Shown here in pieces: positions 18,860-56,007 of a DNA stretch of 64,000 nt (position 1 is the stretch's first letter; every line of letters starts with the position of its first letter). The notes under the pieces are model-generated. The model was not told the origin of the DNA. It saw only the letters and a program-made list of their open reading frames with translations, and did no database searches. The position numbers and the translations under genes are program-made. This stretch comes from Tomocerus qinae (Eukaryota; Arthropoda; Collembola; Entomobryomorpha; Tomoceridae). Where the stretch lies: positions 137,103,875-137,167,874 of the forward strand of contig CM034546.1 in assembly GCA_020055645.1 (NCBI GenBank). The letters are read 5' to 3'.

Positions 18860-21461
18860 ATGAAGGAACTTCTAATCACCAGTTTGGTTTTATTACTGGG
18901 GTCTCCATTTGTCTTGGGACAGTCAACTCCATGTCAGTTTAGCACAAGCGACAACACTCCATCATGTACTTATGATGAACAATGTTTGGACCACGATGAC
19001 AGCGACTGCAGTGCCAAATGGAGTCAGGTATGCTCTATCACAAATTCTATATTCTTCATATACTAGGGTTTTAAGAAGAAGTAAATTTTGTTTGGTCGCA
19101 GAGATATTGGGCATCTAGTCAATACTACAGCCAAGGAGGACCTCTTTTTGTATTCCTCGGAGGGGAAGTCGACACCGAGGGTTGGGCCAATAGCGGAGCA
19201 TGGCTTTATTATGCTTCGAAATTAGGCGCCTTCACTTTGGCATTGGAGCACCGTTTCTACGGAAAGAGCTGGCCAATTAGTACTCCGCAGTCGTAATAAA
19301 GCAAATTTTACTTGTAATTGCAGAATAATTATTATGCGCATATGGAAATTAAATTATTTTAATGCATTCTGTAGAAACCGAACTGCAGCAGCCATGCAAT
19401 TCCTAACGAGTCAACAGGCTCTAAAGGACTATGAACAAATCATCAAATGGTACATTGCCGGAGTTAGCAGTTTGCAAGTAAGACATTAACATAGATTGTT
19501 ATACTCAAATGGTTGAAGTAAGGCAGTGTTTATCAAATACCTATTAATGTTATTGTTTTAATCAGGTTAGGTTAGGTAGGTCCCTCGAAAGCTGATCTTT
19601 CCTGGTATTTGTGAGTAAGTGTAAGGTGGTAAGGTAAAGGTCTATTTCATGGCGCGATTTTTAAAATATGCAATCACTGTCTTATTTCAACCCTCAAATG
19701 TGGCTAACATTTTAAATAAAAAATAAAAGAAAGCTTGAAACCTAGATCTGGAAACGATTTGGTTAAGTTTTTGCAGGGTTTATCCCATTTTTCTGAAAAG
19801 TTTAAATTCTCAGTCTCTTTGGTTAGTTATGCCGTATAGGACTGTATTGGGTGGAACATGTATGATTCTTCGGGTTTAGCTATCTAGGTCTAGGTATATG
19901 TAAAAGTAAATCTCGAGTAAGCAAGTTTTATTTTGAAAGTCTAATTTTATGATCCAAATTAATATAAAAAATCTAAAAAAAATCGGGCTAGTAATTGTAA
20001 CCTATTTCAATAATTAAATTGATATAAATTGTTATTTTTCAGAGGGCAAAGGTCGTTGTATTTGGTGGATCGTACTCAGGAATGCTAGCTGCTAATTTCA
20101 GGGCACAATATCCAAATTTGGTCAATATTGCAGTAGCATCCTCCGCTCCACTCAATTACACTTACAATTTTCCAGGTAGGTAATTAAATTGTCATTCTAA
20201 AAATTAAAATTTATTCTAGTTTCTGATTTGGATTAAAATTACAGAATTCGTTGGATTGAGTTCTCGAGTAATTCAGAGTACAAACCCAACTTGCTTTGAC
20301 AAAATCAAATCCACCTTCACGTGTATGCAAAATATTGTAAACGGCCAAACTTGCCCTGAAACAAGTTTTACAAACCGAGACGATCTCCCTAACACACTTA
20401 AGTAAGTTTTCAATGATTGTTGTGCTAAAGCCTACCTAAAGTTTAGTTAACGCTTAAAGTTCCGTTGTTTCTTGACAGCATATGTACCAACTTCAATGAT
20501 GAAAACCAAAAAGAGCAATTCTTTGTCCAGAGCGGTCGAGAAGTTTGGGCGGGTAATAATCCGGGCACTACATCCTACAATCTGTGCCAAATACTTCTTA
20601 ACCAGACCAATAGCGACATTGTCACTGCTTATGCAGATTTCATTGCAAATAGTAACAATTCCAATCCTTGCTCATCCTCTCGAAGAAAGAGACAAGCTTA
20701 TGATCCTGCAAATGTTATTGCTGCAAATTCTACTAATGATCCTGGCGGATACAACTATAACTGGTATTGGCAGAGTTGCAATGAATTCGTTAACTTCCAA
20801 GTCGCTGACCCAATTCTTCAAATGATTGGTACCGAAATTACAAACCTGACTGAAGTGGCGACTTGCAACTATAACTATCCTGATGCAGGGTACGCTCTCA
20901 AAATTTATTATTACGACTATTTAGTATTATCGTTCACAAACAAATCACGAATCAAGTGACATTAAGTCTCGATAAAAAAATTAATTCCTCCACGCAATGA
21001 AGGAAAATACCGTCACTGTGTTTATTTTTCACAGTTCCCTTCCCACTTTTAAAACATAAACCTAATAATTTACTGTTTTTAGATTTAACTAAACCGTCCT
21101 TCTTGCAAACGTTGAAAAGACCCGAGCGCAGTACAAAGCCGGAAAGGAATATAATGGAACTTGTGTCATTTTCATAAACGGCAGTTGGGACCCTTGGTCA
21201 ACTAAAAGTATCACGAGTCAAAGTGACACTTCGGATGAGAATACCGTCTTCTATTACGAAAGTAACTTGATTCAATACATTGATACCTTATTTACTCCAT
21301 CAACATTTAATTGTCTAAGTCGAAATCATTTTATTTTATCAGAGGGTGAACATGTAGACGACATGTTTTATCCCCCAAGCAACCCATTTGCCAATTCTGC
21401 TATTTCCGGCGTCCAGACACAAATTCTTAATCAAATCGGAGTCTATCTCAAAACTTGTTAA
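18860..21461 (+). CDS. S28 serine carboxypeptidase (PRCP/PRSS16-like), stop codon in last exon
   Basis: Seven exons join in phase: 18860-19027, 19102-19292, 19375-19477, 20043-20175, 20245-20401, 20479-20889, 21083-21461. The N-terminus is a signal peptide ([20 protein letters not shown]). Family landmarks in order are [20 protein letters not shown], the Ser nucleophile in [18 protein letters not shown], the Asp region NGSWDPWS and the His region [10 protein letters not shown]. These enzymes cleave after proline near C-termini in lysosomes or outside the cell. An insertion before the last exons has SRRKRQ, a possible furin-type site, and many N-glycosylation sites. The exon 6/exon 7 junction keeps frame, but exon 7 meets TAA at 21090-21092, its third complete codon, before the catalytic Asp and His. 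No other acceptor restores the frame. It is either a recent null allele or a base error. Confidence 0.8.
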
Positions 21462-34448: not shown

Positions 34449-37400
34449 ATGACTAACATGTTTAATAAATTTTCATCTTCCCGTTACGAAGATGACAGGG
34501 AAGACTTAGTGAGTATTGACATTAGCACTACTTATAGCATTTCCACACTGCGAAATAATCTATCTTTTCGTCAGAAGCTATTATTATTGGCTTGTACTTT
34601 TCTACTCATTGGATTAATAATGGTCACAATTGCAAGTTCTCATCTCGCCAGTGGCGGAGACAGAAAAATAAATCAGAAAATAAAAGTAGAAGACAATTCC
34701 GGCATTTCTACCCACAATTGGCCAACTTCTACTGAGGTCGCTGGAACTCCTTCTGTGAGAACAATTGACTATTTTTTATCCCACTATCATGCATTTACAA
34801 AATCAGTTGAATTAGGAAGTCATATCTACAAAATGCGTAAACAAAAATATGTTGACAAATTATTATCATTGTGCAAAGAAAAAGTACCATCACTGCAGAG
34901 TTCAAATAAAAATATTATTTCAAGGCAAAAACTTTATATTTCTGATAACTCTAATTTTCTAGTAAACAAGTCGAATTGTATATTCTGAACATTGATCTGC
35001 ATTTAATTTTGATTTATCTGGCATGGCAGACAATTCCTTCCTTGATTTTTCGGTTTTCAGTGTACAAAACTAAATACAATTCGGAGAAAAAGATTATCTG
35101 ACGAATTTGGCTGTCCTCTTTACATTTGATTGACTAGAAACTATAATTTAAATTCTCCACTTAAAAATTAAATTGCATATATTTGATATTCCAATATTAT
35201 GTTTTTACAATTAGCTTAAGAAGTAATGGTTTTAACTGTATTTTAGGATAGGTCATTTATTCGTTGACTAATTACATTACAAAATCGTTGTAATATGCAC
35301 ACCAAATATTTATCTTTCAAATAACAAACCAATGTCATTGTATAATGATAAATACAATCATGGATAGCTCAATGTAAAATTAACTCCCGTTCAGTAAATA
35401 GTTCATTATCGAATCGACAAGATAAAAAGCAGTTAGCAAGTAAATAATTTATTCTGACGTAATGCACTTATTATTATCAATGATTGTGAAAGTTAAAATT
35501 ACATCAACGATATAAATATCTATATTTTATTGAAATGCTCGCGTATTTGTTTTGCATGATAACTAATATTTGCAAGAATTTAAGGTTTAATCCAAAATTA
35601 AATACTATTTGCAGGGCTCTAGTAGTACTGCTAAAAGCGACACCCACAAAGTTTCAACCGAAAAGCCTAAAATAAGTAGTAAGTACTAATAACATTATCA
35701 GCTTATTAAAATGCTATAAATGTATTGTGCAAATTCTGAAAATACTTTTTATTATTTTGTAGCCAGGAAAACATGCACTAGCGATATCTGTAAGGAAGTT
35801 GCTTTGGAAATGAAATATTACATGGACGAAAATTATGACCCTTGTACTAACTTCTTTAAGGTTATCATTTTACTAGCCTTTAAATTTACTTTATTGTGTT
35901 TGTTGCATTGCATTATGATGTAAAGTGTGTCGATACAGCCATAAACTTCATAAATTTCAAACATTTTCCACCAATGTTAGATATTCTCCTTTTTAAATAA
36001 CATTTCTTGAATATTAATATTTAAACATCTATATTATGTAGTATTCCTGTGGGGGATGGATAAAAAATCACACAATTCCAGAAGGAACGCCATCTGTAAA
36101 TATCATCACTGAAATAAATTTGGAAAACAAGAAAACAATTCAGAAAATTTTAGGTAACCAAGGTTTCGCTTTCAGCAGATTGGCAAAGTAAAAAATGAAT
36201 AAGTGCGAGTGCAATCTAAATTTAATATTGCATGACAATTTTTTGTAATTTATTTTCAGAAACCTATGATGAAGATGAAGAAATGGAGTCTAAAGAAGTT
36301 TCCGAAAATAAAAATGGATACTATTTAATGTCAGAATATAAAAATAAAAGTAAAGAGTATATTGAAGAATTTAATCGACAGAAAAAATCGGAAGCTGGAA
36401 AAAAGGCGCATGACTTTTATATTTCTTGTGTTAATAAAAGCGACAACGAATCAGATCCTTTCGAAGCTTGGATAGAAAAGTGGTTTGGAAATCAAACTGA
36501 CGAAACAGATGAAAATTGGTCAATGTTTCAGAAATCCAGTAAAAATCCGAAAATGTTTTCAGCTTTCTTTACATTAAAGAAAGTTCATCACCACGTGACT
36601 GGAAAGGGCATTATCCAAGTAATAACAATCAGGGCCGCATAAGAAATTTCGGGAGGGGCCTGACAAATTATAATTTTTGGTTTTAAAACAAAAATTTCTT
36701 TCCTTCGATTTCGGGAGTAAGACAGGGCCCCCGCCCCCCTCGTTGCAGCCCTGATAACAATATTGCCTTAATTCTGATAGCTTTTTCTACTTTGATATAT
36801 CCTAAAAGAAGCTATGAATAAAAAACAATATCAATTAGGTTGTCAGTGGAGGATTGACCTTACCATTGAATTATTATTTAGAGGAGAATAATGAAGTTGT
36901 TGACTATTTGGAGTATTTAACACAGGTAAAACTAAAAATTTAAATCCGATAATTGCAGAAAATGCGCTCAAAAAGAAATTATAAAATTTCTTTCAGTTGA
37001 CAGAAAGCATTATGAACAGTGACCAAGATGTAATCAGGCGAAACGTGGAATCAGTAATCGAATTTGAAAAGAATATCGCATTGATAACGCCGACAGGTTC
37101 CTTGGATGAAAAACACATTATTCGCACGATTAAAGAAATGCAAGAAACTTTTCCATATGTATGTGGATATAATTTCATAAGGTATTTTAGTAATTCTTCA
37201 TTATAATGCTATTTTATTTTCATTTCGTAGATTTCTTGGCAAGAATATTTTGAATCTGTAATTGGGCTTCCAAAGGACGAGATAGAAAATTTGAAGTTAC
37301 TGACCACTGAAAGTGTGTTGAAATACTTTAAAGATCTTCAGATTTTGTTGACACAAATGCTGGCAGATGAAGACAGTCGAGAAACTGTCGATAACTATTT

Positions 37401-39024
37401 ACAGTGGCACTTTATGAAATCCAAAATGCGGTTATTAAAAGCTCCAAAGCCGAAATCGCTTGTCCTACAAAATGCACTAGGCTTGGAAGACGAAGCCACA
37501 AACGCAACCGAAATAGGTACATACAAATTATATTGATACTATAGTCATAATCAGATACGTATCCAGGAATTTGAACAAGAGGAGCACACAAAAATATATA
37601 TGTAAAATAATGACATATTCGAATGAAGCGGAAAAATATTTTGGTTTTTAACCTTGGTTGGCAAAAGTTCTCTTTTCCTGGGAACTGAGGGGTACTTATC
37701 CCTCGGCCTCCCTCTAAATGCGTCCCTGGTCATCATATCAGTTTAAAATAATGTATTTTTCTAAAAACCAAAATGGATTGTTGTAGATATCTCTTTCAAG
37801 TGTGCAGAAGAAACACATTTTGGATTTCCAGATGTTATGGGTCGTTTGTTTGTGCTGGAGACAATAACAAGGGAGAGATTCGAAGCCATTTTCAAAGCAT
37901 ACGAAGGGCTATTCGAGACTTACAATAATATGGTTAAAGATCTGCCATGGATGGATGAAAAAAGCAAAGCAGGTGTTTTGGAAATGTTTGCAAATCTGAC
38001 ATTTGCAAATGGATTTCTTCCATCGGTGATGGACAAGGAGGGAACTGATGCCCGCTACAAGGATCTAGAGATAACAAACAATTCGTACTCCAAAAATGTG
38101 GCGAATCTCATTGACTTTCAAATAGTAAATGAGCTGTTCAGTATAGAAATTGAAATAATCAATGCCAATGCATTTTTCATCAATTCGCAAAATAAAATCT
38201 TGGTTCTAGCTGGGATAGAGCGAAAGCCATTTTTTGATTTCTTCTACCCAACCGTAATCAATTATGCCAGATTGGGATTTACTATGGGCCACGAAATGAC
38301 TCATGCTTTTCAAGCATATTGCAATAAAGGTTATTTTGGTATACTAGTATTCAAGTAGTTAATTTATATCTTTGTCAGCGTATATTTAGTTATGTGTATC
38401 ATATTATTATAACTATGTTATTACGATGTAGATACATTTTAATTAGTGCCTAACTAATATATTTATTTTAGGAAGAGAAGAACATGACGAGGGCATAGAT
38501 GATCCAATATTGTCACTTGATTCATATAACCACTTCATCTCTAGAAGAATATGCGTTGAAGAACTCTACAGTGGATTTAGAATTAACGCAGAGTTTCACA
38601 TCAACGGGTCAGTTACTCTTGAAGAAAATTTTGCAGATGTAGCGGGACTCCAAGTTGCGTATAAATCTTACGTGGATAACTATTGGAAAGATTTTGAAAA
38701 CTTGCCTGGCCTCGAAAGTTTCACTCAAAGTCAAATATTTTTTATCGCTGCGGCACAGGCAAGCAAACCTATTATTTCCTTTGTAGGATGATTTTGAATT
38801 TTATTAATGCTTTAAATTTATAATCGTTTCAGTCGGATTGCAGAAAGGTCGCCTCCGGGGATGAGGGCGACAAAGAATTGAAAACCGAACTATTCCAGCA
38901 ACACAGTCCCGATTCCATTCGAGTAGTTGGGGAAATGACAAACAATAAAGACTTTGCAAAAGCATTTCAGTGTCCTGTAGGTACATTATATAATTTGAAA
39001 GACAAGTGCGAAATTTTCAATTGA
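34449..39024 (+). CDS. M13 zinc endopeptidase, neprilysin-like, type II membrane protein
   Basis: Eleven exons in phase give about 831 aa: 34449-34754, 35615-35678, 35763-35860, 36042-36153, 36260-36618, 36839-36925, 36997-37158, 37231-37516, 37787-38329, 38472-38758, 38833-39024. Exon 1 encodes a short cytoplasmic tail and one membrane anchor (LLLLACTFLLIGLIMVTIAS). Exon 2 is a Ser/Thr/Lys linker. Family landmarks are CTSDIC, DPCTNFFK, SCGGW, NAFFINSQN, the zinc site GHEMTH, the ENFADVAG glutamate motif, DSIRVVG and a C-terminal CPVG...DKC. All zinc ligands and the catalytic Glu are present, so it should cleave small peptides outside the cell. The family's terminal CxxW is CEIFN here. The intron at 38759-38832 is GC-AG; the others are GT-AG. 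Two MITEs lie in introns. The gene is convergent with the M28 gene at 39589. Confidence 0.9.
36630..36753. mobile_element. 124-bp hAT-like MITE just after a splice donor
   Basis: The ends are CAGGGCCGCATAAGAAATT and GCAGCCCTG. The perfect duplication ataacaat lies at 36622-36629 and 36754-36761. It inserted within the donor context of the M13 exon that ends at 36618, leaving GTAATAAC intact. Confidence 0.9.
37552..37728. mobile_element. 177-bp hAT-like MITE in an M13 intron
   Basis: The ends are CAGATACGTATCC and TGCGTCCCTG. The near-perfect 8-bp duplication is gtcataat at 37544-37551 and gtcatcat at 37729-37736. The one mismatch and diverged interior suggest an older insertion. Confidence 0.85.
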
Positions 39025-39588
39025 CATGATTAACTTGCCTTATTGTATTCCTTATTGACTAATGTGATAAAAAATACTATTATTGTTACCATTAATCTTT
39101 GTTACTACAACTCAATGTAATTATTATTTTACTAGCACTATGTAGACATCCAGTAAAAAACATTTTTATAAATTAACACCCTTTTCAATAGGGCCCTATT
39201 AGCAAATTTAGTTTTTAATGCAATAAAATGTCTATTACTAAATGTACCCCATTTTGGTTCAGTTCGGTCCAATTCAGTCCAATTCAGTTCAATTCGGTCC
39301 ATGCCGTCCTTACTTTACAAAATGTTCATAATGTGCTACCCATAGCAGTGGAATTTATGGTTTAACATACTTTCATAAGTATGTATGTATATCGTAAGTG
39401 ATTAAAAATTGCAAACCTCTGATAATGATATAAATGTTCAGTTTGGTCAAAATTTTTTGATAAAAAATGGTGAAAACAGCCTTTATTAATTTTCAAAAGG
39501 ATTTCCATCATACAAAAACCATGCACATAAAAATAATGAGTTACATAAATTAAATCAATTCCAGTAAGGAATAAGAAACTATCGAAAA
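39025..39588. other. Convergent intergenic region
   Basis: It lies between two tail-to-tail peptidase genes. A short tandem run built on cagttcggtccaatt lies at about 39258-39302. Nothing else recognised. Confidence 0.5.
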
Positions 39589-41649
39589 CTAAATTACATG
39601 TGAAAAAACTTTCGCCATTTCAATCGCATAAGCAACAGCCAATTTTGTAAACTGTGAGACTTGGTCGAAATCAATCTGTTCAAACGTGTCGTCGGCTGTG
39701 TGTTTAAGTGGGAAAAACATTCGTTCGGAGAGTGAGGCTGCAGGGTATCCAAACATGGTCCAAGGGGCGTGGTCCGAGCAGGCGTAGCCGCAAGCAGAAT
39801 GAACCCATTTGTATTCAAGATATTCATCAACAAGCAAACCTAGAAAGGCATTTAGATGGCTGTTTGTGTAGTCAGTAATGAGGACGATTTCTTTAAGGCC
39901 CGTATGGTATCCAACCATGTCGAAGTTGACCATCGACACAACGTGGGTTCCGTCAAAGTAGTACTTGGAGGCAATATGCTTAGATCCCCAGAGACCCATC
40001 TCTTCTGCCGCATACCAATGAAATTCGATCGACTTTTTCGGAGTGACCCCGCTGGCAAGCAGAATGCGAAATGTCTCCAGCAAGACAACACACCCGCTGG
40101 CATTATCGTCCGCCCCGGGCGCCTCATTAGTAGGATTGAAATTGTCGATGGAATCCAAGTGAGCCCCAAGGATAACCACTCCTCTTTTTGACCCTTGGAT
40201 TCGTGCGATGATACTTTTCTGAGTCCAGAGATGTTTAAAAGACTGTACCGAGGCATCGCCTCTATATCCACTTTCTACGATAGAGCGATCCACTTGATCC
40301 AGTAGCCACAGGGAGGACTTGACCCCCGACGAAGAATTATAGTAACGGTTATGGAAATAGGTGCTGAATTTCCTAACAAAATCTCGCATCCTGTCAATGC
40401 GGAGTTTTCTATACATCTCCCTAATTGTATCTTGGAACTGCACGGCATTAGGAAAACCTGTCGGTAATATCATTTATTGCAGTTTACATTATTCACATTT
40501 CATTGTAGTTCTGTTAAGACTTACCACCGATTTTTTTGACCTTTTTGGCCTTTTTTTGCTTTTTGGTTTTAACAGTTGTGGAGATCTGAAAAATATTTAA
40601 CTTTCAAAAAATTTTAATTACAAATAATTGCAAGTGCAAAATAACAATCACTTTACAATTTATGATTATTGCCAGCTCGTTAGATGTTAAACCTTAAAAT
40701 ATTTGATATTTGGCGGCATGCCGTAAATGCCGCAAATGCCGTAAATTATTTTTGAAGTTTTTAGCTGTTTATATACATAAATTGATGTGGGAAGTGAGAA
40801 ATAACACGCTAAAAGTACTTTTATAAATCAATAATGTGTATTAACATCATTATATGGCATTTATAGTGGCTGAAAAGTTTTGAAAAGGGAAAACTCATTT
40901 TATAACTTATGACAGTTAGATTTATATAAAATGATCGAAATTTACGGCATTTGAAAATAATTTATGGCATGCCGACTTTATACGCTGCCTTAAAATGTCC
41001 ATTTTAAGGTTTCATATCGTCCCTTAAGAAACCATTTAACCTCAATCCATTTTTCATTTAAATTATTTGAATTCGAATGGACGCACCCTTCTTTATATTA
41101 TACTACATACATACTGATATACTGATGTAGGACATTTTTATACTATTGCAGGCAATGACCCTGGCAATAAGTGACTAGCTAGAATCTAAAAAATTCACCT
41201 AAAATACTTCTAAACACAACGATTACTATTTAACGCATTGCTGCCCAGTCATTTTGCCAATGACGTCCATATTTCCAGTTCGAATTTTTGAATGCTTGTT
41301 TATCTTAACTACACACAGCAGACCAAATTTCTTAAATATAAATATAAATCAATGTAGTTCTCACGGTTTCAGGGACTTCGGTAGAAGTCCAATTGTCAAT
41401 TGAAACGCCAGAATCATATTCGACTTCGTTATTCTGATTTATTTTGCTTTTGACGAGAAGAGAACTTGCAATTGTGAAGATTAGTACTCCAGTCAACAGT
41501 AAAATACAGTTAAATAGTAATAATTTTTTATGGAGTAACAGGATTTTTTTAAGAGAAAAATATCTGTAATCAGTGGGACTGTCATCTTCCACTGAACCCC
41601 TCTCGTATTGGTATTGAGAAGATGGAAATATGTTACACCCATTGACCAT
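39589..41649 (-). CDS. M28 aminopeptidase with an M13-like membrane-anchor exon (chimeric)
   Basis: The model has exons 41649-41365, 40585-40525 and 40457-39589, all GT-AG and in phase, giving about 404 aa. Exon 3 is a complete M28 catalytic domain like bacterial and fungal leucyl aminopeptidases. It has GAHLDS, APGADDNASG, YAAEEMG, NFDMVGY and KHTADDT, covering the five zinc ligands and the catalytic Glu, plus the CGYACSDH disulfide loop. Exon 1 encodes a cytoplasmic tail and one membrane segment (LLLFNCILLLTGVLIFTIAS) followed by KINQ and NWTSTEV, clearly homologous to exon 1 of the M13 gene at 34449. Exon 2 is a Lys-rich linker with phases 0 to 1, as in the M13 linker exon. The paralog at 49878 has a signal peptide and propeptide instead. 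The catalytic part is certain. The join to exon 1 rests on splice sites and phase only. Confidence 0.75.
40689..41012. mobile_element. Probable MITE in the first intron of the M28 gene
   Basis: The ends aaaccttaaaat and attttaaggttt are inverted. Inside are paired ggcatgccgtaaa/atggcatgccg blocks and an atgccgcaaatgccgtaaat mini-repeat. No clear target duplication. A fragment of the ATATCGTCC family follows at 41015-41065. Confidence 0.5.
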
Positions 41650-42569
41650 TACGAAACAGAACTACTTTTTAAAATGTTAATTAGAAAAGGATTCTGGAAA
41701 CAAAAGCAGACGCGGTAAAATAAAAATGCACAGTTCATGAACCCAAAGTCTATGAAAGATTAAATAACCATTTACCTATATTATACTTCATATCTATATC
41801 TAACCACGAACGTATTGAACGTAACAGTAACCTTTTTTATTTTATGTCATGCTAATGATGATCTGTTGTATCATAACCATAGATAAGTCGGTAATCACAC
41901 AAGTGCAAGGTGATTACATGGTGTCGTAGTCCGTATAGTTATCTCACCTGATATTATGAGTCATGTATGGCTGTAATATTCTAATCAATGGGTTTTATAC
42001 TGAATGCTGTAATTTAGGCGTGTATAATATACTTACCATGTTACACGGTTGCTCATACACGTGTGAGATGACATATTTTGAAATTTGTACTTATCTGTCC
42101 TTGATATAAAAATATCAGGCATTTGCATTCGCAGAATTGTTGATATTTGAGAGAGACAGATGAATAGTGGTCATTTATTTCATCAGGTGGATTGGAGTAC
42201 AATTATTACAAACGTAACGTTGAATAACTAACTGTTGTACTGTACGTACTACCTATCTTAATTATTATTGCAAATTTTCTGACTGCAAAGTAAACCAATG
42301 TCGTTCGTACAATACTAGCTGTCAACCTAGCACAATGTGCTAGAAAAATGTTAAATAAGTAAACTTGTAACGGCTGCGCATTATCCCGAATTTCATCGAT
42401 AGACCGGTGATTTCTTAGTAGACCAATAATTGTTGATGCATAAGCTTTTTGAAATTAAAAGACAGTACTGGTAGTCTATAATTTTGGTACCACCCCCAAT
42501 ACTCAATAAGAGTATTGGGGGCATACTGAATACGGACAAATTTTTTTTAAAACGTTATAACATCGAATA
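41650..42569. other. Upstream region of the chimeric M28 gene
   Basis: AT-rich. No gene is recognised. A small inverted pair (cccccaatactc/gagtattgggggc) lies at about 42494-42522. Confidence 0.4.
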
Positions 42570-42574
42570 GTTTG

Positions 42575-43184
42575 TGTGCGGTGTATTGGCCGATCTGCGG
42601 GATTGTGATATTTTTGGGTTTTGCTTTCTTTATGCTGCTAATTTTATGCACAAGTAAAACTAACAGTTCGTAATTTAACTAGCTTCACTGATCAGGTTGT
42701 AAGGCTGCCAATGACAAACTAGTGAGTGTGACTATCTTAGTGCGTGTATGTCAATTATCATGTGTCAACTATTGTCAACTATTTTGTAATAGACTTTTTA
42801 TAAACACTTTCCCTAACCTGATTTAAGGTAAAATGATATCTCGTTACAAAAATACAAAGGAAAAGACTTATTTCTTAACCTATATTTATTTCCAAAATCA
42901 ACTTAATCAAAATCTGGAAATTCTTCACACACACACTAACACGTTCATTCGGTATGAAATCACGAAGCACACTGACTCTTCTGAGTCCTATCAGACGCAT
43001 ACACAACACACAACGATTGTAGCCAAGCACAAAACGTTTTACTTGGCAGTTAAAACTCAGCTTGCACCTTGCGCATGCGTTCACATTACTTTCATATTCA
43101 TTCTTTATCAAGCATAACAGTTTAACATAATATTATAGGTTTACTATATTATAATTCTAGTTATTAAAGGCAAAAGACTAAACA
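42575..43184 (-). repeat. 3' LTR of the BEL/Pao element
   Basis: A 610-bp terminal repeat, nearly identical to 49108-49719. In element orientation it starts TGTTTAGTC and ends CCGCACA. Confidence 0.95.
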
Positions 43185-43195
43185 CTCCCGGCCTT
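43185..43195 (-). other. Polypurine tract
   Basis: AAGGCCGGGAG on the minus strand immediately before the 3' LTR. It is the expected plus-strand priming site, though interrupted by pyrimidines. Confidence 0.55.
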
Positions 43196-43321
43196 GGAAT
43201 ACATTAGTATTTCAATATTCAATTAATAAATCATATAATAAATCTTAATTACTATTCACTTCTTACAAACTGTGAAAAAATTCTATTTAATTTTTGTAAT
43301 AAAGAAAACTGTTTAACATAC

Positions 43322-46300
43322 CTAATCTAACGGTAATAAACATAACTTAACAATAGGACGAGTTAGTTCTCCATTAGTTGTCTTCAATTTCACAACTCGA
43401 ACCATTCCGTCGTCTCCTGGCTTTACTTCTGTGATACGCCCCATTTTCCATCTTAAGGGAGCTTCATTGTCATCTTTTATTAGGACCAGGTTCCCAATCT
43501 CTAAATTCTTCTTGGTTGTCCACCATTTAGGCTTCTCCTGCATTCTGGCCAGATACTCAGAACTCCATCTCCGCCAAAATGTCTGGAACATGTACTGGAT
43601 CTTCTGCCAGCGGCTCAATCGGTTTATATTTAGTGAAGTCATGTCCGGTTCCGGTACTGCCATTAACGATTCGCCAATTAGGAAATGTCCAGGCGTTAAG
43701 GCTGCAACTTCACTAGGATCTGTCGATAAATTACATAATGGTCTCGAATTTAAACATGCCTCAATTTGTTTTAATAGGGTCATCATTTCTTCAAAATTCA
43801 ACGGCAACTTTCCGAGAATCCTTTTCAAGTGAAATTTCATAGATTTCACTCCTGCCTCCCATATTCCTCCGTGGTGAGGTGCAGAAGGTGCATTAAAGTG
43901 CCAACTCACTCCTTTGTTTGTCATAAAATTCTTGACATCTTTTCTTAATTCTTGTTCATTCCATAATTTCAGGTATTCTTTCAGCTCTCGATCTGCTCCG
44001 ACGAAATTGGTTCCACAGTCGCTGAATACATCCGAGGGAATTCCGCGCACTGCAACAAATCTATTGAAAGTTTCCAAGAACGAAGCTGAGGTCATGTCAC
44101 TCACTAATTCCAAGTGAATGGCTCTAGTAACTAGGCATATGAACACAACTACATAGCCTTTATATTCGATAGATTTTCTTCCCTTAGCATTCTTCAGGAT
44201 GTAGGGGCCCGCAAAATCCACTCCACAATTCTTGAATGCTTTTGCTGGGTTGACTCTTGCTTGGGGTAATTGTCCCATTAATTGTTGGCAGGTTTCGGCG
44301 CGTTGTCTCGTACACACGACACACGAACGGATTATTTTTTTAATACAGTTTCTTCCTCCAACAATCCAAAAATTTTCTTGTAATTTTGCCAACAGCAGCT
44401 GAGATCCTGCGTGCTGGAGTTCCTTGTGATAGTGTCTGACTATCACTCTGGTCACATGATGCTTACTGGGTAACAAAATGGGATGCTTCTTGTCATACGT
44501 CACCTCAGCTTTTTCTAGTCTTCCTCCAACTCTGAGAAGTCCATCGCCATCAACAAATGGGTTGAGCTTTCTCAAATCCTTGGAGATTGGTTTCTTTTGT
44601 AACAATAATTCAATTTCTTTCGTATATCCAAGTTCTTCATCAGCTTGGACTTTCTTCATGATGAATTTAGTTGCTTCGTTCAAGTCCTCTACAGATAGAG
44701 ATCCAACAAACTTTTTCTTATTACAAAAACGAAGCACATAAGCCATAATTCGTCTCAACTTGTTCCATTCTGATATCTTCATAATCAGCATTTGTATTCT
44801 ATCTTCTTCTACGTAAGTAGTCGTTTGTGAACATATGATTGGTTTTATTTCTTTCAGAAATTCTTCTTTCTCTTCATAGTCACCGACTTCTTCATCGAGT
44901 TGTTGATTTCTTGGAGGACCTTCCTACCACAAATCATGATACTGTAATTCTGACGGATAAATTCCTCTTGAAGCACAATCTGCTGGATTCAACACTCCGG
45001 AGATATGTGCCCACCTTTCTCTTGGAAGTAATTCTTGAATTTCATTCACTCTATTTCCAACGAAAGTTTTCAACGTTGACGGATGCTTTCCTATCCAACC
45101 CAAAACGATTGTCGAATCCGTCCACGCATTCATTTCTTTTATTTCAATGCATAAAGCATCTTTCACAGTCTTCTCAGCAACACAGCTCCACACAGTTCTA
45201 ACATTGGCGTAGTCACTATTGGAGGCACTGATGATTGCTCTTTTAATTTCTTCTTCGATTTTACTTCTGATGACAATGGTGCTATCTTAGTCTTGGCTGC
45301 TACTAGTCTAGTTATACTTTCAGTTCCATTTTCTGATCGCAGATACACAACAGCTGCATATGCTTTATCAGACGCGTCGCAGTAGCCATCGAGGTAATAA
45401 TTTGTGCTATTTTCTAAAGTACAGAATCTTGGAATCTTAATCTTTTGTAACAAATCCATTTCTTCACTGTAACTTTTCCACACATTCAACCTTTCTTCTG
45501 GAAGGACGTCATCCCAATCGAGCTTGTCTTTCCAAAGATCTAGAAATAGTATCTCTCCTTTCACTGTCACAGGTGAAAGCCAACCGAGAGGATCAAAGTT
45601 TTTTGCTATTGCGGATAAAATTTCTCTTTTTGTAACAAGTGATCCTTTAATTTCAGCTTGTAACAAAAACACATCCTCTCTCGGATTCCATAAGAGTCCC
45701 AAAGTTTTAACCGTTTTATCAATTCCAACTTCTAGGATGTCTTTGGTTTCTCGTAACTCTTCTGGAATTGTTTCTAAAAAATCTTTGCTGTTGGAAGACC
45801 ATTTTCGTAATTCGAACTTTCCTTTATCCAGGATTCTTAACAAGTCTTCTTTCAGTTTTACAGCTTTTTCCACGGTGGAGGCTCCAGTCATTAAGTCATC
45901 CACGTAGAAATCCTTACATATTACTGTTGCTGCCTTCGGATAATGTTTACTTTCAGATTATGCCAAATGTTGCACACATCTAACTGCATGATAAGGTGCT
46001 GATGCTGTTCCGAAGGTAGCCGTTGTCAGTTTATAATCTTGAATTGGTTCATCCACAGATTTTCTCCAAACTATTCTTTGATAATCTGCGTCTTCCAAAT
46101 CCATATTTACCTGCCGGTACATTTTTGGAATGTCAGCAGACATAACAATAGGATGTAGTCTGAATCTCATCATGATATCAACTACACTATCTTGAATCGT
46201 AGGTCCAACCATAAGACACTCATTCAATGACACTCCAGTTGAAGACTTCGCCGACGCGTCGAACACAACTCTCACTGGGGTCGTTTTACTATTTGGGTTT

Positions 46301-48495
46301 AATACTACATGGAATGGCATGTAGCAATTTTCTTCTTTCTTGATTACTTCCTTATCTGGCACTTTCTGCATGTGTCCTAGATCCAAGTAACCTTGTAGTA
46401 CATCATTATACTCTTGAATTTTATCGGTTGAATTCTTATATCTTCGCTCCATGGATTGGAGTCTCTTGATAGCCACACTCCGAGATTCTCCGATTTCCTT
46501 TCGGTTATCCTTAAATGGTAACTTCACTACATATCTTCCATCGGAGTCTCGACTGTGAGTTTCGTTAAAATGTCTTTCACATTTTATTTGTTCTTCAGTC
46601 AATATTTTCTTATCAGGGACTTCTTCTAATTCCCAATATTGCTGAATTTTTGTAACAAAATCTACTGTTGCATGGTGAACTCGATAAGGCTGTAACTTAA
46701 CCTCTGTGTCACACTTTCCCTGAAGAATCCATCCAAGGTGTGATTCTATTGCCCATGGAGTTCCATCAGGTCCTTTTCGTTTTCTTGATTTAATGAGATC
46801 TTGATATATATCTCCTCCCAGAAGCACCTCTATGTGTCCTGGTTCATTAAACTTTGGATCTGCAAGTGGGAGACCCTCAATATGAGTCCAGTTTGCAGTA
46901 CTAATCCTTTCACTGGGCAACTCTCCAGTAATATTATTCATAATATGTGCTTCTACTCGGAAAGTTTTATCTGATTTAAGCGTCGATCCGAAATAGAGTT
47001 CTACACCAAGCTGAGATGTTCCAACTTCTTGCTCTCCTAAGCCTGAAATTGGTAGTTTCACTCGATGCGTCTTCAATCCAATTTTCGTTGCACACTTTCT
47101 TGTAATAAAGCTTGTCTGGGAACCATTGTCCAACAACGCTCTGCAAACGAAAACTTGGTTCTTATTATTTTTAATCTTGATAAGTGCAGTAGACAGTAAA
47201 GTTGTGGCGGTGTCCCGTATCCCCAAGCAACACGAAGATTTTCCCTTTCCGTCCTTTACTTCTTCCTGCTGTTCCTGTTTCTTTTCAGGTTCTTCATTTT
47301 GTGAATTTTTAGATTCTTTAACTTCAAGATGAATCATGGTATGATGTGGTACATTACAATCTCTACAATTGTATTTCCAGGTACACTCTTGTGTTCGATG
47401 ACCAATTCCCATACACTTGAAACATCTTCTTGATTTCCTTATGTACTCCTTTCGTTCATGTTTATTCATTTTTCTGAATTCATCACATTTACTCAAATAA
47501 TGTTTATCTTTCTTACATAAGGAACATCCATCTTGAGTATTTTCTGTGCCATGATGCAATTTAGTTGTCGTATCTTTATTTGTCACAAAGGCTGGTTTTG
47601 CACTAGTATTTCCTTTTGACTTTATTCCTGCAGCTGCTGTCACTCTGGCATGCTGTAGATTAAAATCCGTAAATTCCTTCAATGTAGGAATTGTATCTGA
47701 CTTAAGGGTTTCTTCCCACTTAAGTCTTGAAACATTATCGACCTTCCTAGCAAACAGATGAATCACTAATAAGTCTCTTGTTTGTTCAGGAGTCAATTTC
47801 ATCACTTCCAGAGCCCTAATACATTCATTAATTGAATCACCAATTTTCCTTAGAGCATCTGGATTTTCCTGGTTCAATACAGGTAAACTGAGAACTCTGT
47901 CAAAGTGAGACTTGATTATTTCTCTCTTGTTCTCGTATCTTTTCTTAAGGGTGTCCCAAGCTCCATCGTAGTTTAAATCAGTCACTTGAATATTCTGGAG
48001 TAGGGTTGCAGCTTCGCCCTTAAGAGAGGCCTTCAAATATTGAAGTTTTTGTGCTCCAGCTAACTTCGCATTGTTATGCACGGACGCCACAAATAAATCT
48101 TGAAAAGACAACCAATCTCTAGCTTCACCGGAGAATGTTGGCAATTCCAATTTTGGTAGTTTAATATCTGCCACTGCAGTGGGATTTCCTCCAGGAGCTC
48201 CTGCTGCAGGGTAAGTATTTTTCAATATTCCTAGCTTTAATATTGCTTTGCTGATTTTATCCAACAAGGTTAATATTTCTGCACCTTCGGTGATATATTC
48301 AGCTTCATCTTTTGCAACTGTACTGGCTCTCTCATTAAGAGCTGAACATTTGTCTTTCACCCCAATCAATTCTCCATTTTGATGAGTAATCTCAAACAAA
48401 GGGGGTGGTACCAAGACATCATAGGCGTTAACTACCATTTCCAATCTGGTAATGTCAAGTGCAACAGCACGGCGATCTTTTCTGACTTGATCCAT
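43322..48495 (-). pseudogene. BEL/Pao gag-pol polyprotein, broken by two stops and a frameshift
   Basis: It starts at the ATG at 48495. In order come a gag domain, zinc knuckles (CSLCKKDKHYLSKC, CFKCMGIGHRTQEC), an aspartic protease (LLDNGSQTSF), a reverse transcriptase (VVFDASAKS, MSADIPKMYRQV, FYVDDLM), RNase H (YCDASDKAYAA, WTDSTIVLGW), an integrase His/Cys zinc site, and an integrase core with the D-D-E residues (CGVDFAGPY, DCGTNF, HHGGIWEAGVK). Three lesions break it: TAA at 45958-45960 just before the YVDD box, a frameshift in 45163-45205 within RNase H, and TAG at 44924-44926 before the integrase. All catalytic motifs are otherwise kept, so decay is recent and the copy is non-autonomous. 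Confidence 0.93.
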
Positions 48496-49090
48496 GATGA
48501 TTTCTATTTCACTCACAGATTTGAAGTTTAACTTTCACGAAATGTTCACTTATATTTTCAAATAATATAATGTTCACTTCTATTTCACTTTCACTTGAAT
48601 TCAAATTTCAAATTAGACATACATAAATAAATAGTTTCTGTTACAAAGATTTGCTTACTCTACCAATCCAACGACTGTGGTCTCACACAACCTCTGCTTC
48701 TTGTTTTAAATTTGGCGGCTCTACAAGGTTCTTCTTCCTTGGGCTGCTACAAATGAGACTTCCCTCTGCTGGGCTGAGTCCCGTCTTACGTGAGATGATG
48801 AACGACCGCTGCCAATGACCAACCGCCAATGCTATTTGACTCGTCCTCACTCAATTTCTTCAGTTTTTCTTTGCTGGATGACCGACCGACAATCTCCTTA
48901 TGATCTTGCCTCGTTGTATCCAGATCTTGCCTCGCTGTCTTCAATATGAACAACGATGACACTTTTCTTCTACTGAGTAGCGCACCACTCAGTCACTTTT
49001 AATTTTACGAAATTTCACAGTTCAAAATTCGTTTTTTCTTTAATCACAATCCTCTTACCAATACGATTTCAATTCTGGATACAATCTTGA

Positions 49091-49107
49091 TCCGGCTCGA
49101 AGGACCA
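49091..49107 (-). other. Primer binding site for tRNA-Tyr
   Basis: The plus strand reads TCCGGCTCGAAGGACCA, identical to the 3' end of common eukaryotic tRNA-Tyr including CCA. It directly abuts the 5' LTR. Confidence 0.8.
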
Positions 49108-49719
49108 TGTGCGGTGTATTGGCCGATCTGCGGGATTGTGATATTTTTGGGTTTTGCTTTCTTTATGCTGCTAATTTTATGCACAAGTAAAACTAACAGT
49201 TCGTAATTTAACTAGCTTCACTGATCAGGTTGTAAGGCTGCCAATGACAAACTAGTGAGTGTGACTATCTTAGTGCGTGTATGTCAATTATCATGTGTCA
49301 ACTATTGTCAACTATTTTGTAATAGACTTTTTATAAACACTTTCCCTAACCTGATTTAAGGTAAAATGATATCTCGTTACAAAAATACAAAGGAAAAGAC
49401 TTATTTCTTAACCTATATTTATTTCCAAAATCAACTTAATCAAAATCTGGAAATTCTTCACACACACACACTAACACGTTCATTCGGTATGAAATCACGA
49501 AGCACACTGACTCTTCTGAGTCCTATCAGACGCATACACAACACACAACGATTGTAGCCAAGCACAAAAGGTTTTACTTGGCAGTTACAACTCAGCTTGC
49601 ACCTTGCGCATGCGTTCACATTACTTTCATATTCATTCTTTATCAAGCATAACAGTTTAACATAATATTATAGGTTTACTATATTATAATTCTAGTTATT
49701 AAAGGCAAAAGACCAAACA
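49108..49719 (-). repeat. 5' LTR of the BEL/Pao element
   Basis: A 612-bp terminal repeat. It differs from the other LTR by a CA-repeat length change near 49460 and a few substitutions. Confidence 0.95.
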
Positions 49720-49877: not shown

Positions 49878-51517
49878 TCAGATTTGTGGCTCCGACATTT
49901 CAATCAAATATGCAACCGCCAATTTGGTAAACTGTGCGACTTGTTCGAAATCAACCTGGTCAAAGGTGTCATTGGCTGTGTGCATGTGGGGAAAAAAGTC
50001 TCGTTCGAAAGGTGAGGCTGCAGGGAATCCAAAGATGGTCCAGGAGGCGTGGTCCGAGCAGGCGTAGCCACAGGCAGAATGCGCCCAGGTGAATTCAAGA
50101 TACTCGTCCACGACCAACCCCAGAAAGTCATTTAGATGGCTGCTGGTGTAGTCAGTAGGAAGAGCGATTTCCTTGAGTCCCGTGTGATATCCCACAACGT
50201 CGAAGTTGACCATCGACACTACCGGCGCCCCTTCGTTGTAGTACTTTGCAGCGATATCCTGAGATCCCCGACGACCGACCTCTTCTGCCGCATACCAATG
50301 GAACTCGATTGACTTCTTCGGAATGACTCCGCTGGCAAGCAGAATACGAAATGTCTCCAGCAGGACAACACACCCGCTGGCATTATCATCTGCGCCAGGT
50401 GCATTACCGTGGGATCGATTGAACCTATTTATCGAATCTTGATGCGCTCCCAGAACAACGACTCCACTCTCGGAACCTTCGATTCTCGCAATGATGCTAT
50501 TCTGAGGCCACAAGTAATGGCGAAAAGGCTTCACAGAGGCACTGCCTTGGTATTCGCTTTCCTTGATGGAACGGTCCACTTGATGTAAAAGCCATCGGGA
50601 GGACTGGGCTCCTAAAGGAGAGTTGTAGTAACGGTTGTGGAAATGGGTGCTGAATTTCCTGACGAATTCCTGCATTCGGTCAATATTGAGTTTTCCATAC
50701 ATCTCCCTGACTGTCGTTTGGAAACGCATGGCGCTGGGAAGTCCTGAAATGTTTAAATATTAACACTGTATCATATTTTATTCAGTTAAACATAAAGTAA
50801 ATTTAAATACCTTGGTGTCAATTTTGTCAACAAAGGTATTGGTTCAAAACAGCCAGAATGATAATCACAAATCTGCAATAAGACTTTGTTACGTCGAAGA
50901 GGCATACCTGATGGTGCTGGAGGTTCACGTATCAAAACTGGGTAGTTCCTTCCAGTGGCATCCATAAAGGAAACGCGATTTCGAACTAGGTCATCGATCT
51001 GTTCTTGGCTCATCCATGTTGGACGTTGATTGTCACTGATTTGAATAAGACGATCGCCTTCCTTCACTGAAAATATTGACATACGAGACAATTTGGTAAA
51101 TATTTAGTTATTTCATTATTAATTTATTTTCACATTAAATCACGACATCACGACGTGGAAACTCAATGAAATAAGAAACGAAACTAATGCCATTGTAAAA
51201 ATATGTTTTTCATATAAAATTATGTTTCGAGATATTTGAATGGAAATCCATTTCAAAACATTTTGGAATCCTGAGTCCAGATAAACGATTAATTGGCTAT
51301 GTTCATTGTGGGATATGATTTAATATATTTCTTGGAATGATAATGACAAAGTCACAAATCCAAAGCAGATAGATTTTAACTCACCACTATCCTCCGTATA
51401 TCCAGATACCGGGATCGATGTGTCATTATCTCGTGAAGTACTAGTCAGACATGCCGGATGCGCCCAACCTGATAAAAGTAGTAGTAGTATACCTGAATTG
51501 AATAGCATGAATGTCAT
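49878..51517 (-). CDS. Secreted M28 aminopeptidase (bacterial leucyl aminopeptidase-like)
   Basis: Three exons, 51517-51385, 51066-50908 and 50743-49878, all GT-AG with phase-1 introns, give about 385 aa. Exon 1 is a signal peptide (MTFMLFNSGILLLLLSGWAHP). Exon 2 carries a propeptide-type segment (RPTWMSQEQIDDL...FMDATG) like those of secreted bacterial aminopeptidases. Exon 3 is the whole catalytic domain: GAHQDS, APGADDNASG, YAAEEVG, NFDVVGY, CGYACSDHASW and MHTANDT, so all zinc ligands and the catalytic Glu are present. It should remove N-terminal hydrophobic residues in gut or extracellular fluid. It is a close paralog of the gene at 39589. The intronless catalytic exon and bacterial-like motifs permit an origin by transfer, untested. 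The BEL/Pao element begins 158 bp beyond its stop codon. Confidence 0.9.
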
Positions 51518-53310: not shown

Positions 53311-56007
53311 ATGAAAGCATTAACTGCATTAGTGATTCTTACTGCATCGTGTTGGATAGATAGAACGAGCGCTTGTCGAGAAAGGTGTCTTCCAGTTACC
53401 TCCACTGGAAAGGAATACACTTGTAATGACGTCATCCAAAACAAGCAAGGCCTATTTCAAGTTGCTCTGCCGGGCACCTGTGAATATCCGAACTTTCCTT
53501 CGGGGAAAAATGCACTTTGCTGCTCCAGCAGGCAATCTTATGCTGCTTACGTTCTGAAAGCTGATCAAGACGGTAATGTTCATTTTATTCATCAATTCTA
53601 TGTGTAAATGCTACTACAAGCCAAGCAATACCAATGAAATTTTGGGTAATTAATTTGCAATTGCTACGTTTATTAAGGCCAACAAATTATTCTAGTTATA
53701 ATGGCATTTTATATGATATTTATTGCAATGACTTTTATCCAATTTATAGCTGTTGCAAAAATTGCAATTGGAGCGTATCCAGGGGAGTTCCCTCACCAGG
53801 TATTTTTGGAGATAAACAGACCTGGAGTAGGAGTGGCCAAGTGCGGAGGAACTATTTACAATAGAAATTACATAATTACTGCCATGCATTGTGTCACGAA
53901 TCAAACCACCGGAGTCTTTGACGAAGCAGAACAAATTACCGTCACTGCTGGAGAAACCAACGTTGCCAAACCTCCACCAGAAAGCAAATACAAAGTAGCC
54001 GAAGTCATTCACCACAGAGAGTACAACTATTCCAAGATCTCTGATGGTTATGATATTGCCATTTTGAAATTAGCTACACCTTTGGATTATGACAACCCAA
54101 GAATAAGACCTTTGAAAATTGCCCCCAAAGATTTCCAAATCGATTACGATAGTAAGTCTTTATATTATTTTCTAATTCACATTAATATAAGCGTTCAAAA
54201 GGCTTTCAATATAAATTTCAGTCAGTTTCATGAACTAAAACAAATATAAATACTAAAATCTTGAAACTTGAGTTATGAGTTGGCAAGGTTGAAAAAAATC
54301 ACAAATTTAACCTTAAAGATAGTTTTTACATAATTTTAAATGCATAATTTTTAATTTTAATTTCTAACTAGGCAAGGCAATATTCATGGGATGGGGAAAC
54401 AGAAATTATAGTGGAGAGATACGAACCACACCTGACTTGCATAAAAGTTTTGTACCTTTACGAAAGCCCCTGAAGTGTCAAGAACTCAGTGCCCTGGATC
54501 TGAAATACTACAATCCAATAGAAGGACAATTATGCATTGCTGGTGGGAACAGTGGAGTCAGTAAGTACAATTAAAACATTAAAGATTAAGAATATTAAAT
54601 ATTACATCTATCTACGATAAATAAATTACTAATTATGGTACATTGGTAGATAATGCTATATATTTATAGGATAATAATTAAGCAGTATACAATTTAATAA
54701 TGTTGCATTTATAGTGGTTGGACAAGGAGACAGTGGAGGTCCGACTGTCTGCGCTGATGTCAATGATGGAAATAGGCCGATTTTATGTGGAATTACATCT
54801 TACAAATCCGATTGCATACAATGCGGAACACCTGCTGTGTATATCCGAGTCTCAGCATTCGCCGAATGGATTCAAAAGCACACAAAAAATGGTTAGTTAT
54901 CCGAAATTCAAAAAAGTATTTTCAAGGTTTGATTTGTTTGACCTTGTGTTTGTTGTACCAAAACGCAAAAGCGTGTTTCCCTCTAATTATTTGTGTGTAC
55001 TATTGCTATATCATATATTTTTTTAAACCAGAAAATTCTCTTCCGCTTTCTAAATCTGTAATTTTCACCGTAAGCATTATAATAATAACTAAATAATTTT
55101 TGATATTTTACCTCAGAGCCTCAGGAGAGCGAATACTTCTTGGATGTTAATTTAGATGGTAAACGAGGAGAACCAGAGGATTTTCTAGTTCGTGTTATGG
55201 GAAAGAAAAAGATTTGCGACGGTGTGCTCATCGCTCCAAATGCTGTTCTGACGGCACGAAGTTGTGTCAAGGACAACGATGAAGAGTTCATTATGACCCA
55301 CACAAAATCAAAGAAACAATTAAAACAAGATGTACAAGTTCCCTATGAAGAGTACAAACAAACCGGAAGTGAACTTTCCGACAAACTTCTTAAAGATGAA
55401 GTTCGGCAACATGATCTCATTTTAATTCGGATCAGCAATCCCGTTGATATTTCTTTTTACCCGGAGATTCCTCCAGTGGGATACAAACCAAAAGGTTCCA
55501 TTTCATATCTTTAATATATAAATTTATTTCAACAGTATGTTAATTTGGGATCGTCATTTTCGTCATTGATTCCTAGATTCCTAGAATCGGTCTAAGTAAA
55601 TAGCGGTATTTTATTTAGCTAATATTTTTTATAGTTTGCTAATAATTTGGGATTTGTATTTTGCATTAATAGCTGGAATGGAGTTGTCGTATGCTTCCAG
55701 CAGGGATCAACGTGATTTGCGGAACTACATCTTAATGACTAAAGAAACATGTCAGAAATCTTACGACATTTTGAATGTGACGATAACAGATGACCAATTA
55801 TGCGGGGTACAAGTTTACGCCGGAGGGTCCAGCTGCGACAGACCCTTGGGATCACCTCTGATATGCGAAGATAAATATTTGTGCGGCATTGCCTCGTCAA
55901 GGGGCTGTTTCTTTAATTTTCCCAATATATTTGCCAGCACTTCAGATGACAATAATGGAGGTTTCATCAGAAGTGCACTAGAAGCTATCGGAAAGCGTAG
56001 TCGTTAA
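53311..56007 (+). CDS. Clip-like, two-domain S1 protein: active trypsin domain plus dead trypsin domain
   Basis: Six exons (53311-53572, 53750-54151, 54372-54560, 54715-54891, 55117-55494, 55673-56007), all joined by phase-1 introns, give about 580 aa. A signal peptide is followed by a six-Cys clip-like segment ending in CC. Domain 1 starts at IAIG (in place of IVGG) and has the full triad: TAMHC (His), YDIAILKL (Asp) and GDSGGP (Ser). Domain 2 keeps the fold but not the triad: TARSC replaces TAAHC, HDLILIRI keeps Asp, and CDRPLGSPLIC replaces CxGDSGGPLxC, so the Ser is lost. Clip proteases and their dead homologs act in arthropod hemolymph cascades. Having both in one chain suggests a self-contained protease with a regulatory pseudodomain. 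The start is the first ATG after the TATA box. Confidence 0.85.

What the first reader, a model, noticed from the sequence alone, without database searches (positions are those of the whole stretch)
34449..41649. Chimeric M28 aminopeptidase carrying the membrane-anchor exon of the neighbouring M13 gene
Seen: the first exon at 41649-41365 (-) and exon 1 of the M13 gene (34449-34754, +) encode homologous cytoplasmic/anchor segments, sharing KLLL, TIASS, KINQ and STEV in the same order, and both end in phase 0 at a GTGAGA donor. Each is followed by a short linker exon running phase 0 to 1 (64 bp in M13, 61 bp and Lys-rich in M28). The M28 catalytic exon starts in phase 1, like M13 exon 3. The sister M28 gene at 49878 has instead a signal peptide and a propeptide exon. 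Inference: local capture of the M13 5' exons turned a secreted, propeptide-controlled aminopeptidase into a type-II membrane-tethered ectoenzyme, topologically like neprilysin. Two peptidases on one membrane with complementary specificities could clear peptides together.
Basis: partly seen in the sequence, partly recalled or inferred. Interest (0 to 1): 0.9.

Follow-up and report, generated by a model that had tools for sequence, protein, structure and literature searches.

The report
Aminopeptidase gene with borrowed membrane anchor
In what looks like a springtail genome, a gene for a normally secreted aminopeptidase appears to have lost its secretion signal and propeptide and gained the promoter and membrane-anchor exon of an unrelated peptidase (neprilysin family), which would tether the enzyme to a membrane; no RNA evidence for the splice could be obtained.

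Summary
The 41649-41365 (-) exon is homologous to exon 1 of the neighbouring M13 gene (45/100 identical, E=2e-14), and 41649-41365 / 40585-40525 / 40457-39589 joins into one open 404-aa frame with GT-AG introns. Six of six other close M28 genes of this genome have a propeptide exon; none was found here. The catalytic domain looks intact.

The anchor is nearer to that of a second M13 gene 7.3 Mb away ('M13b': 60/90 identical, against 45/95 for the neighbour). A 117-column block upstream of the start codon (window 41920-41805) is shared with M13b and was not detected at the neighbour. So promoter and anchor exon probably came together from an M13b-like gene. M13b now carries lesions as assembled.

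Most likely: a chimeric gene made by 5'-end capture, encoding a type-II-anchored leucyl aminopeptidase. Not shown: splice, expression, localisation. Against: linker homology to M13 exon 2 is marginal, neutral evolution of the anchor is not rejected, and the exon-3 acceptor is weak. Known process, new combination.

The parts
41365..41649 (-). Exon 1 of the chimeric M28 gene: cytoplasmic tail, transmembrane anchor and start of stalk (95 codons)
   Evidence: homologous to M13 anchor exons; 60/90 identical to the M13b anchor, 45/95 to the neighbour
40525..40585 (-). Exon 2: 61-bp Lys-rich linker, phase 0 to 1
   Evidence: open frame, GT-AG; the only candidate with sites this good on 128 kb of strand (thresholds set after seeing it); homology to M13 exon 2 marginal
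39589..40457 (-). Exon 3: M28 catalytic domain with stop codon
   Evidence: PF04389 E=1.2e-37; metal-site residues kept; 2 departures at strongly conserved columns; model of 40473-39592, pLDDT 87.5, matches LapA first
41805..41920 (-). Upstream block shared with the M13b 5' flank (89/117 columns identical), presumed promoter element
   Evidence: only itself found in the genome, which also missed the M13b copy
34449..39024 (+). Neighbouring M13 (neprilysin-like) gene M13w, 11 exons, 831 aa, open throughout
   Evidence: exon model; PF05649, PF01431
34449..34754 (+). M13w exon 1 (anchor exon)
35615..35678 (+). M13w exon 2 (64-bp linker, phase 0 to 1)
49878..51517 (-). Sister M28 gene with signal-peptide exon, propeptide exon and catalytic exon (74% identical catalytic domain)
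42575..49719 (-). LTR retrotransposon (Bel/Pao-like by eye) between the two M28 genes; LTRs identical in 607 of 612 columns

Best explanation
A duplicated M28 (Vibrio/LapA-type) leucyl aminopeptidase gene lost its signal-peptide and propeptide exons and came under a captured 5' end: promoter block plus anchor exon (and possibly the linker exon) of an M13 gene of the M13w/M13b subfamily, more probably an M13b-like copy than the present neighbour. The frame is kept because the 0-to-1 linker exon feeds the phase-1 acceptor of the catalytic exon. The product would be a 404-aa type II membrane protein: about 42 cytoplasmic residues, one transmembrane segment, a stalk with one N-glycosylation sequon, a Lys-rich hinge, then an aminopeptidase domain on the lumenal or extracellular face, made without the propeptide of its relatives. 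Shown: homologies, phases, absence of a detectable propeptide exon, conserved catalytic domain. Inferred: splicing, promoter activity, topology, localisation, activity.
For: Anchor homology. Upstream block shared with M13b. One open frame across three exons. Exon 2 is needed for the frame and is the only phase-0-to-1 candidate with sites this good in the window; at the weakest in-sample training thresholds 30 occur on 128 kb of strand, 0.21 expected per 907 nt, and this one alone lies in the interval. Propeptide exon in 6 of 6 other close paralogues, none found here. No M13 exon 3-11 match better than E=3.8 in 39500-42574. Among ATG ORFs of 15 aa or more on the minus strand 40458-42574 the anchor exon has the most hydrophobic segment. 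Catalytic-branch omega 0.26-0.28; 2 departures at columns conserved in 85% or more of the other rows. Chance of an open anchor frame after neutral change about 0.12, 0.03 and 0.01 for 15, 26 and 34 substitutions with an assumed indel ratio of 0.1.
Against: No transcript evidence. Exon-3 acceptor scores 0.23, below all 12 training acceptors left out one at a time (0.98-9.72), while the same acceptor scores 4.93-11.03 in 5 of 6 paralogues (L021: -3.16, boundary unsure); exon-1 donor 1.99 is low but in range (0.64-8.28) and the same in M13b. In the ORF scan the donor threshold (weakest in-sample training donor) excluded the exon-1 donor itself. Omega=1 on the M28 branch of the anchor is not rejected (2dlnL 1.63); for the catalytic branch 2dlnL is 2.24 (L018) or 5.09 (L020), and its omega is about 2.5 times the sister's. 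Without indels the neutral chance of an open anchor is 0.16-0.41. Linker homology marginal. No protein with this N-terminus among 209 word-sharing candidates of suitable length. The propeptide of a related enzyme is called an intramolecular chaperone (title of a reference in PMC8208579), so its loss could impair folding. The donor rests on three sequences with similar dS.
Confidence: 0.6

Rival explanations
1. Relic: the 41649 exon is what is left of an inverted partial M13 duplicate and is not spliced to M28; the M28 catalytic exon is expressed from another start (such as the in-frame ATG at 40473) or is decaying.
For: Weak exon-3 acceptor; omega=1 not rejected for the anchor; M13b itself has lesions; an ATG at 40473 opens the same frame.
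Against: Anchor frame, ATG and donor intact; a mini-exon with the needed phase lies between; catalytic domain conserved. A start at 40473 gives no hydrophobic signal, whereas the 11 relatives that I read, of 120 listed, begin with a signal-like stretch.
Confidence: 0.25
2. Alternative terminal exons: the signal-peptide and propeptide exons of the sister gene (51517-50908) are spliced to the 40457 exon as well as to the sister's own catalytic exon, so 39589-40457 belongs to the sister gene.
For: The phases fit (1 to 1) and the two catalytic exons are head to tail.
Against: The sister has its own stop and an AATAAA about 130 nt after it; a 7.1-kb LTR element lies between; the anchor and linker exons would be left unexplained.
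Confidence: 0.07
3. Capture from the neighbouring M13w gene by local inversion or duplication, as first proposed, followed by unequal rates.
For: Adjacency; anchor homology; ML dS of M28-M13w (0.78) is no larger than of M28-M13b (0.85); the linker DNA matches M13w (7 of 2000 shuffles reach the score) better than M13b (1034 of 2000).
Against: Protein, nucleotide and bit-score closeness to M13b and the upstream block found only at M13b.
Confidence: 0.2
4. The chimera is made membrane-bound but shed: the Lys-rich hinge next to the catalytic domain is cut by a trypsin-like enzyme, releasing a soluble aminopeptidase, so the anchor is a transport or zymogen device.
For: KTKKQKKAKKVKK lies just before the residues that align with position 4 of the LapA chain 7oez; trypsin-like genes lie in the same window.
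Against: Cleavage is pure inference; by eye there is no Arg and so no furin-type site in the hinge.
Confidence: 0.2

Closest known systems
Secreted M28 leucyl aminopeptidases of the LapA / Vibrio proteolyticus type (PDB 6zep, 6zeq, 1amp), including collembolan 'leucine aminopeptidase 1'
   Same: Catalytic domain, metal-site residues, fold; 44-57% identity over the aligned part to the first 20 of the 120 proteins listed
   Different: No signal peptide and no propeptide found; an N-terminal anchor instead
M13 peptidases (neprilysin family): M13w and M13b of this genome
   Same: Cytoplasmic tail and transmembrane anchor exon, phase pattern; upstream block with M13b
   Different: Catalytic domain is M28, not M13
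Type-II-anchored M28 enzymes: glutamate carboxypeptidase II / NAALADase group and Golgi glutaminyl cyclase (topology recalled; related entries listed)
   Same: M28 fold behind an N-terminal signal anchor (works like)
   Different: Other M28 subfamilies; that their anchors are not M13-derived is recalled, not tested
Chimeric genes by shuffling of exons and regulatory elements in Drosophila (PMC5460883, passages seen)
   Same: New gene from the 5' end of one gene and the 3' part of another, often with new expression
   Different: Here older and between two unrelated peptidase families; the expression effect is unknown

Membership tests
M28 leucyl aminopeptidase (LapA/Vibrio type) | Peptidase_M28 domain over the curated cut-off | tested here: met
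   PF04389 129.9 bits, cut-off 21.3
M28 leucyl aminopeptidase (LapA/Vibrio type) | Metal ligands and catalytic acid kept | tested here: met
   H105, D122/D123, E157, E158, H258 invariant and D185 nearly invariant in the 27 rows of A2; their assignment to the Vibrio ligands is recalled
M28 leucyl aminopeptidase (LapA/Vibrio type) | Signal peptide plus N-terminal propeptide | tested here: not met
   propeptide exon in 6 of 6 other close paralogues, none in L016, and in the window only the sister's; so it is an M28 enzyme by catalytic domain, not a typical secreted proenzyme
M13 / neprilysin | M13 catalytic domains | tested here: not met
   none in the chimera; no M13 exon 3-11 remnant in 39500-42574
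Type II membrane ectoenzyme (works like) | N-in signal anchor | tested here: inconclusive
   hydrophobic segment and charge bias fit, but the bias is small in the two M13 anchors; no topology assay
Chimeric gene by exon shuffling | 5' part homologous to one gene, 3' part to another, in one frame | tested here: met
Chimeric gene by exon shuffling | Joint transcript | not testable with these tools
   no RNA data available

The most novel reading that the evidence does not exclude
One capture replaced both the regulation and the latency mechanism of a secreted zinc aminopeptidase: the gene took over an M13 promoter and anchor, so a constitutively active, propeptide-free M28 exopeptidase is co-expressed and co-localised with M13 endopeptidases on the same membrane, forming an endo-exo peptidase pair; the M13 donor copy has since decayed while its anchor lives on in the M28 gene.
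Probability: 0.25. Interest if true: 0.65.

Novelty: new variant of a known kind. Interest (0 to 1): 0.45.

Why it matters
If transcribed, it is a clean, phase-exact case of promoter plus anchor-exon capture between two unrelated peptidase families. It would turn a secreted proenzyme into a tethered enzyme and make it testable whether an M28 catalytic domain of this type can fold and stay controlled without its propeptide.

Tried and rejected
Looked for a lost signal-peptide or propeptide exon upstream of the chimera and in the whole window: none but the sister's. Looked for other M13 exons in 39500-42574: none. Tested whether the upstream block is a repeat: one genome match, itself, at a sensitivity that also missed the 76% M13b copy. 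Searched the protein collection for the N-terminal 115 residues: 209 candidates, none at E<=10. M13w found only 2 proteins at E<=0.001 among 7729 candidates, so the anchors could not be rooted outside this genome. Alternative ATG ORFs on the minus strand 40458-42574 were scanned; none is more hydrophobic than the anchor exon, but the donor threshold used there excluded the anchor exon's own donor. The nearest third M13 paralogue for rooting was not obtained (requests 76, 79, 82, 85 unanswered). A genome-wide propeptide search was asked once and not answered. Species: relatives with organism names point to Collembola; 'Tomocerus qinae, about 334 Mb' is recalled and was not confirmed.

Dropped before counting: L025 (36% identity, E=1.4e-4, a stop inside) is not counted among the close M28 paralogues; L022-L024 are three exons of one gene. 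The propeptide check saw about 1.5 kb of flank per paralogue. Exon 4 of M13b (frameshifted) was left out of the M13w-M13b distance, as were unaligned exon ends. In one search only columns with at least 20 of 26 residues were used. A2 holds 25 of the 120 proteins listed, chosen by me.

Papers: PMC10432511, PMC8208579 and PMC5460883 were seen as passages only; the chaperone role of a propeptide comes from a reference title there. Two further papers were not held. Paper searches (4 papers; 1; 2; 8 listed of 37) listed nothing on an M13-M28 chimera; only titles and abstract starts were seen, so this is no proof of absence in print.
Full report
What is there. The window lies at G000:C1:137103875-137167874 of a 334-Mb genome. 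Among the 120 proteins listed the closest relatives that bear an organism name are from Collembola (Folsomia, Orchesella), so this is most likely a springtail. On the minus strand an M28 gene can be read as three exons, 41649-41365, 40585-40525 and 40457-39589, giving one open frame of 404 aa with GT-AG introns. On the plus strand an M13 gene, here M13w, has 11 exons from 34449 to 39024 (831 aa, open throughout; one intron is GC-AG). Upstream of the chimera lies a sister M28 gene with signal-peptide, propeptide and catalytic exons, separated by an LTR retrotransposon with nearly identical LTRs (607 of 612 columns).

The anchor exon is an M13 exon. M28 exon 1 and M13w exon 1 are 45/100 identical with E=2e-14; 0 of 500 shuffles reached the score. 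A genome search with the M13w anchor finds three such exons at E<=0.001: M13w, the M28 gene, and one at C1:129853.8 kb. The third belongs to a second M13 gene, M13b, whose exons could be aligned one by one with those of M13w. With M13b as query the M28 anchor scores 92 bits and M13w 58 bits; three more matches at E 0.28-2.3 look like noise. The M28 anchor itself did not complete as a query.

The donor is probably not the neighbour. M28 and M13b anchors share 60 of 90 residues, M28 and M13w 45 of 95, M13w and M13b 46 of 90. M28-M13b is the closest pair in 1906 of 2000 bootstraps on amino acids and 1930 of 2000 on nucleotides. A block of 117 columns, 89 identical, lies 156-271 nt upstream of the M28 start codon and 117-229 nt upstream of the M13b start codon; none was detected at M13w at E<=0.01. 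Against this, dS values are close to a trifurcation (M13w-M13b ectodomain 0.79; anchors M28-M13w 0.78, M28-M13b 0.85, M13w-M13b 1.39), and the short linker exon matches M13w rather than M13b at DNA level. The two M28 catalytic domains differ by dS 1.03 and dN 0.16 by the counting method, which gives 0.58 and 0.18 for the M28-M13b anchors. M13b, as assembled, has a 10-nt deletion in exon 4 and no GT at the aligned end of exon 8, so the nearest relative of the M28 anchor seems to be a decaying gene.

The linker. M13w and M13b exon 2 are both 64 bp, phase 0 to 1, and homologous (0 of 2000 shuffles). The M28 linker is 61 bp with the same phases, but its similarity to them is marginal (81 of 2000 for M13w, 31 of 2000 for M13b, protein level). 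Without it the anchor could not be read into the catalytic exon. A scan of both strands of the window found no other phase-0-to-1 mini-exon with sites as good; with the weakest training sites as threshold, 30 are found in 128 kb of strand, or 0.21 expected in this interval. The thresholds were set after seeing the exon and the training set is 12 introns, so this is support, not proof.

What was lost. The propeptide exon was found upstream of the catalytic exon in 6 of 6 other close M28 paralogues and not here. Eleven relatives whose sequences I read, of 120 listed, begin with a signal-like stretch and a propeptide of the same type. Bacterial aminopeptidases are often secreted with inhibitory N-terminal propeptides, and one such propeptide is called an intramolecular chaperone (discussion passage and reference title in PMC8208579).

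Is it functional? For: the catalytic domain keeps its metal-site residues, departs from strong conservation at 2 columns (the sister at 1 of 64), is modelled with pLDDT 87.5 and matches the LapA proenzyme and mature enzyme first in the PDB. Branch omega of the chimera is 0.26-0.28, of the sister about 0.107. The anchor frame would stay open by chance after 15, 26 or 34 neutral substitutions with probability 0.12, 0.03 or 0.01 under an assumed indel ratio of 0.1, and 0.41, 0.23 or 0.16 without indels. Against: omega on the M28 branch of the anchor is 0.31 but omega=1 is not rejected (2dlnL 1.63); for the catalytic branch 2dlnL is 2.24 with L018 and 5.09 with L020 as outgroup. The exon-3 acceptor (0.23) is weaker than all 12 training acceptors, and than the same acceptor in 5 of 6 paralogues (4.93-11.03); the sixth, L021, scores -3.16 if its boundary is right.

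How it most likely works. The tail and anchor should insert as a type II signal anchor: net charge +5 before and +1 after the hydrophobic segment, and an N-W-T sequon outside, which M13b has too and M13w has not. That would place a propeptide-free leucyl aminopeptidase on the lumenal or outer face, driven by an M13-type promoter. Joint peptide clearance with M13 enzymes is an attractive guess that nothing here tests. The Lys-rich hinge just before the catalytic domain would also allow shedding.

Verdict. The process, chimeric genes by shuffling of 5' ends, is known (PMC5460883, passages), and anchored M28 enzymes of other subfamilies are known (recalled). The combination is new to me; paper searches listed nothing like it.

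Noticed in passing
window 42575-49719: LTR retrotransposon with both LTRs (DUF1759, integrase zinc-binding and DUF5641 domains), LTRs identical in 607 of 612 columns and GTTTG on both sides; a young insertion close to the 3' end of the sister M28 gene.
   Followed up: partly
L004, about C1:129846.3-129853.8 kb (-): M13b, whose anchor is closest to the M28 anchor, has a 10-nt deletion in exon 4 and no GT at the aligned end of exon 8 as assembled.
   Followed up: yes
window 9724-10335 (+): Match to PF04450 'Peptidase of plants and bacteria' (E=1.2e-11) in what looks like an animal genome; origin not tested.
   Followed up: no
window 20447-21458 (+), 53677-54246 (+), 55104-55511 (+): Further peptidase matches: S28 serine carboxypeptidase in two ORFs and trypsin in two ORFs; the window is rich in peptidases.
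   Followed up: no
window 38758-38833: GC-AG intron in M13w (exon 10 to 11); the GGCAAGC donor stretch is the same in M13b.
   Followed up: no
window 41805-41920: The block shared with M13b holds a TTATCT (GATA-like, recalled motif) in both copies, and a GTAATCA...TGATTAC inverted repeat in the M28 copy.
   Followed up: no
genome G000: Large M13 family: 78 exon-level matches to PF01431 on contigs C1-C4.
   Followed up: no
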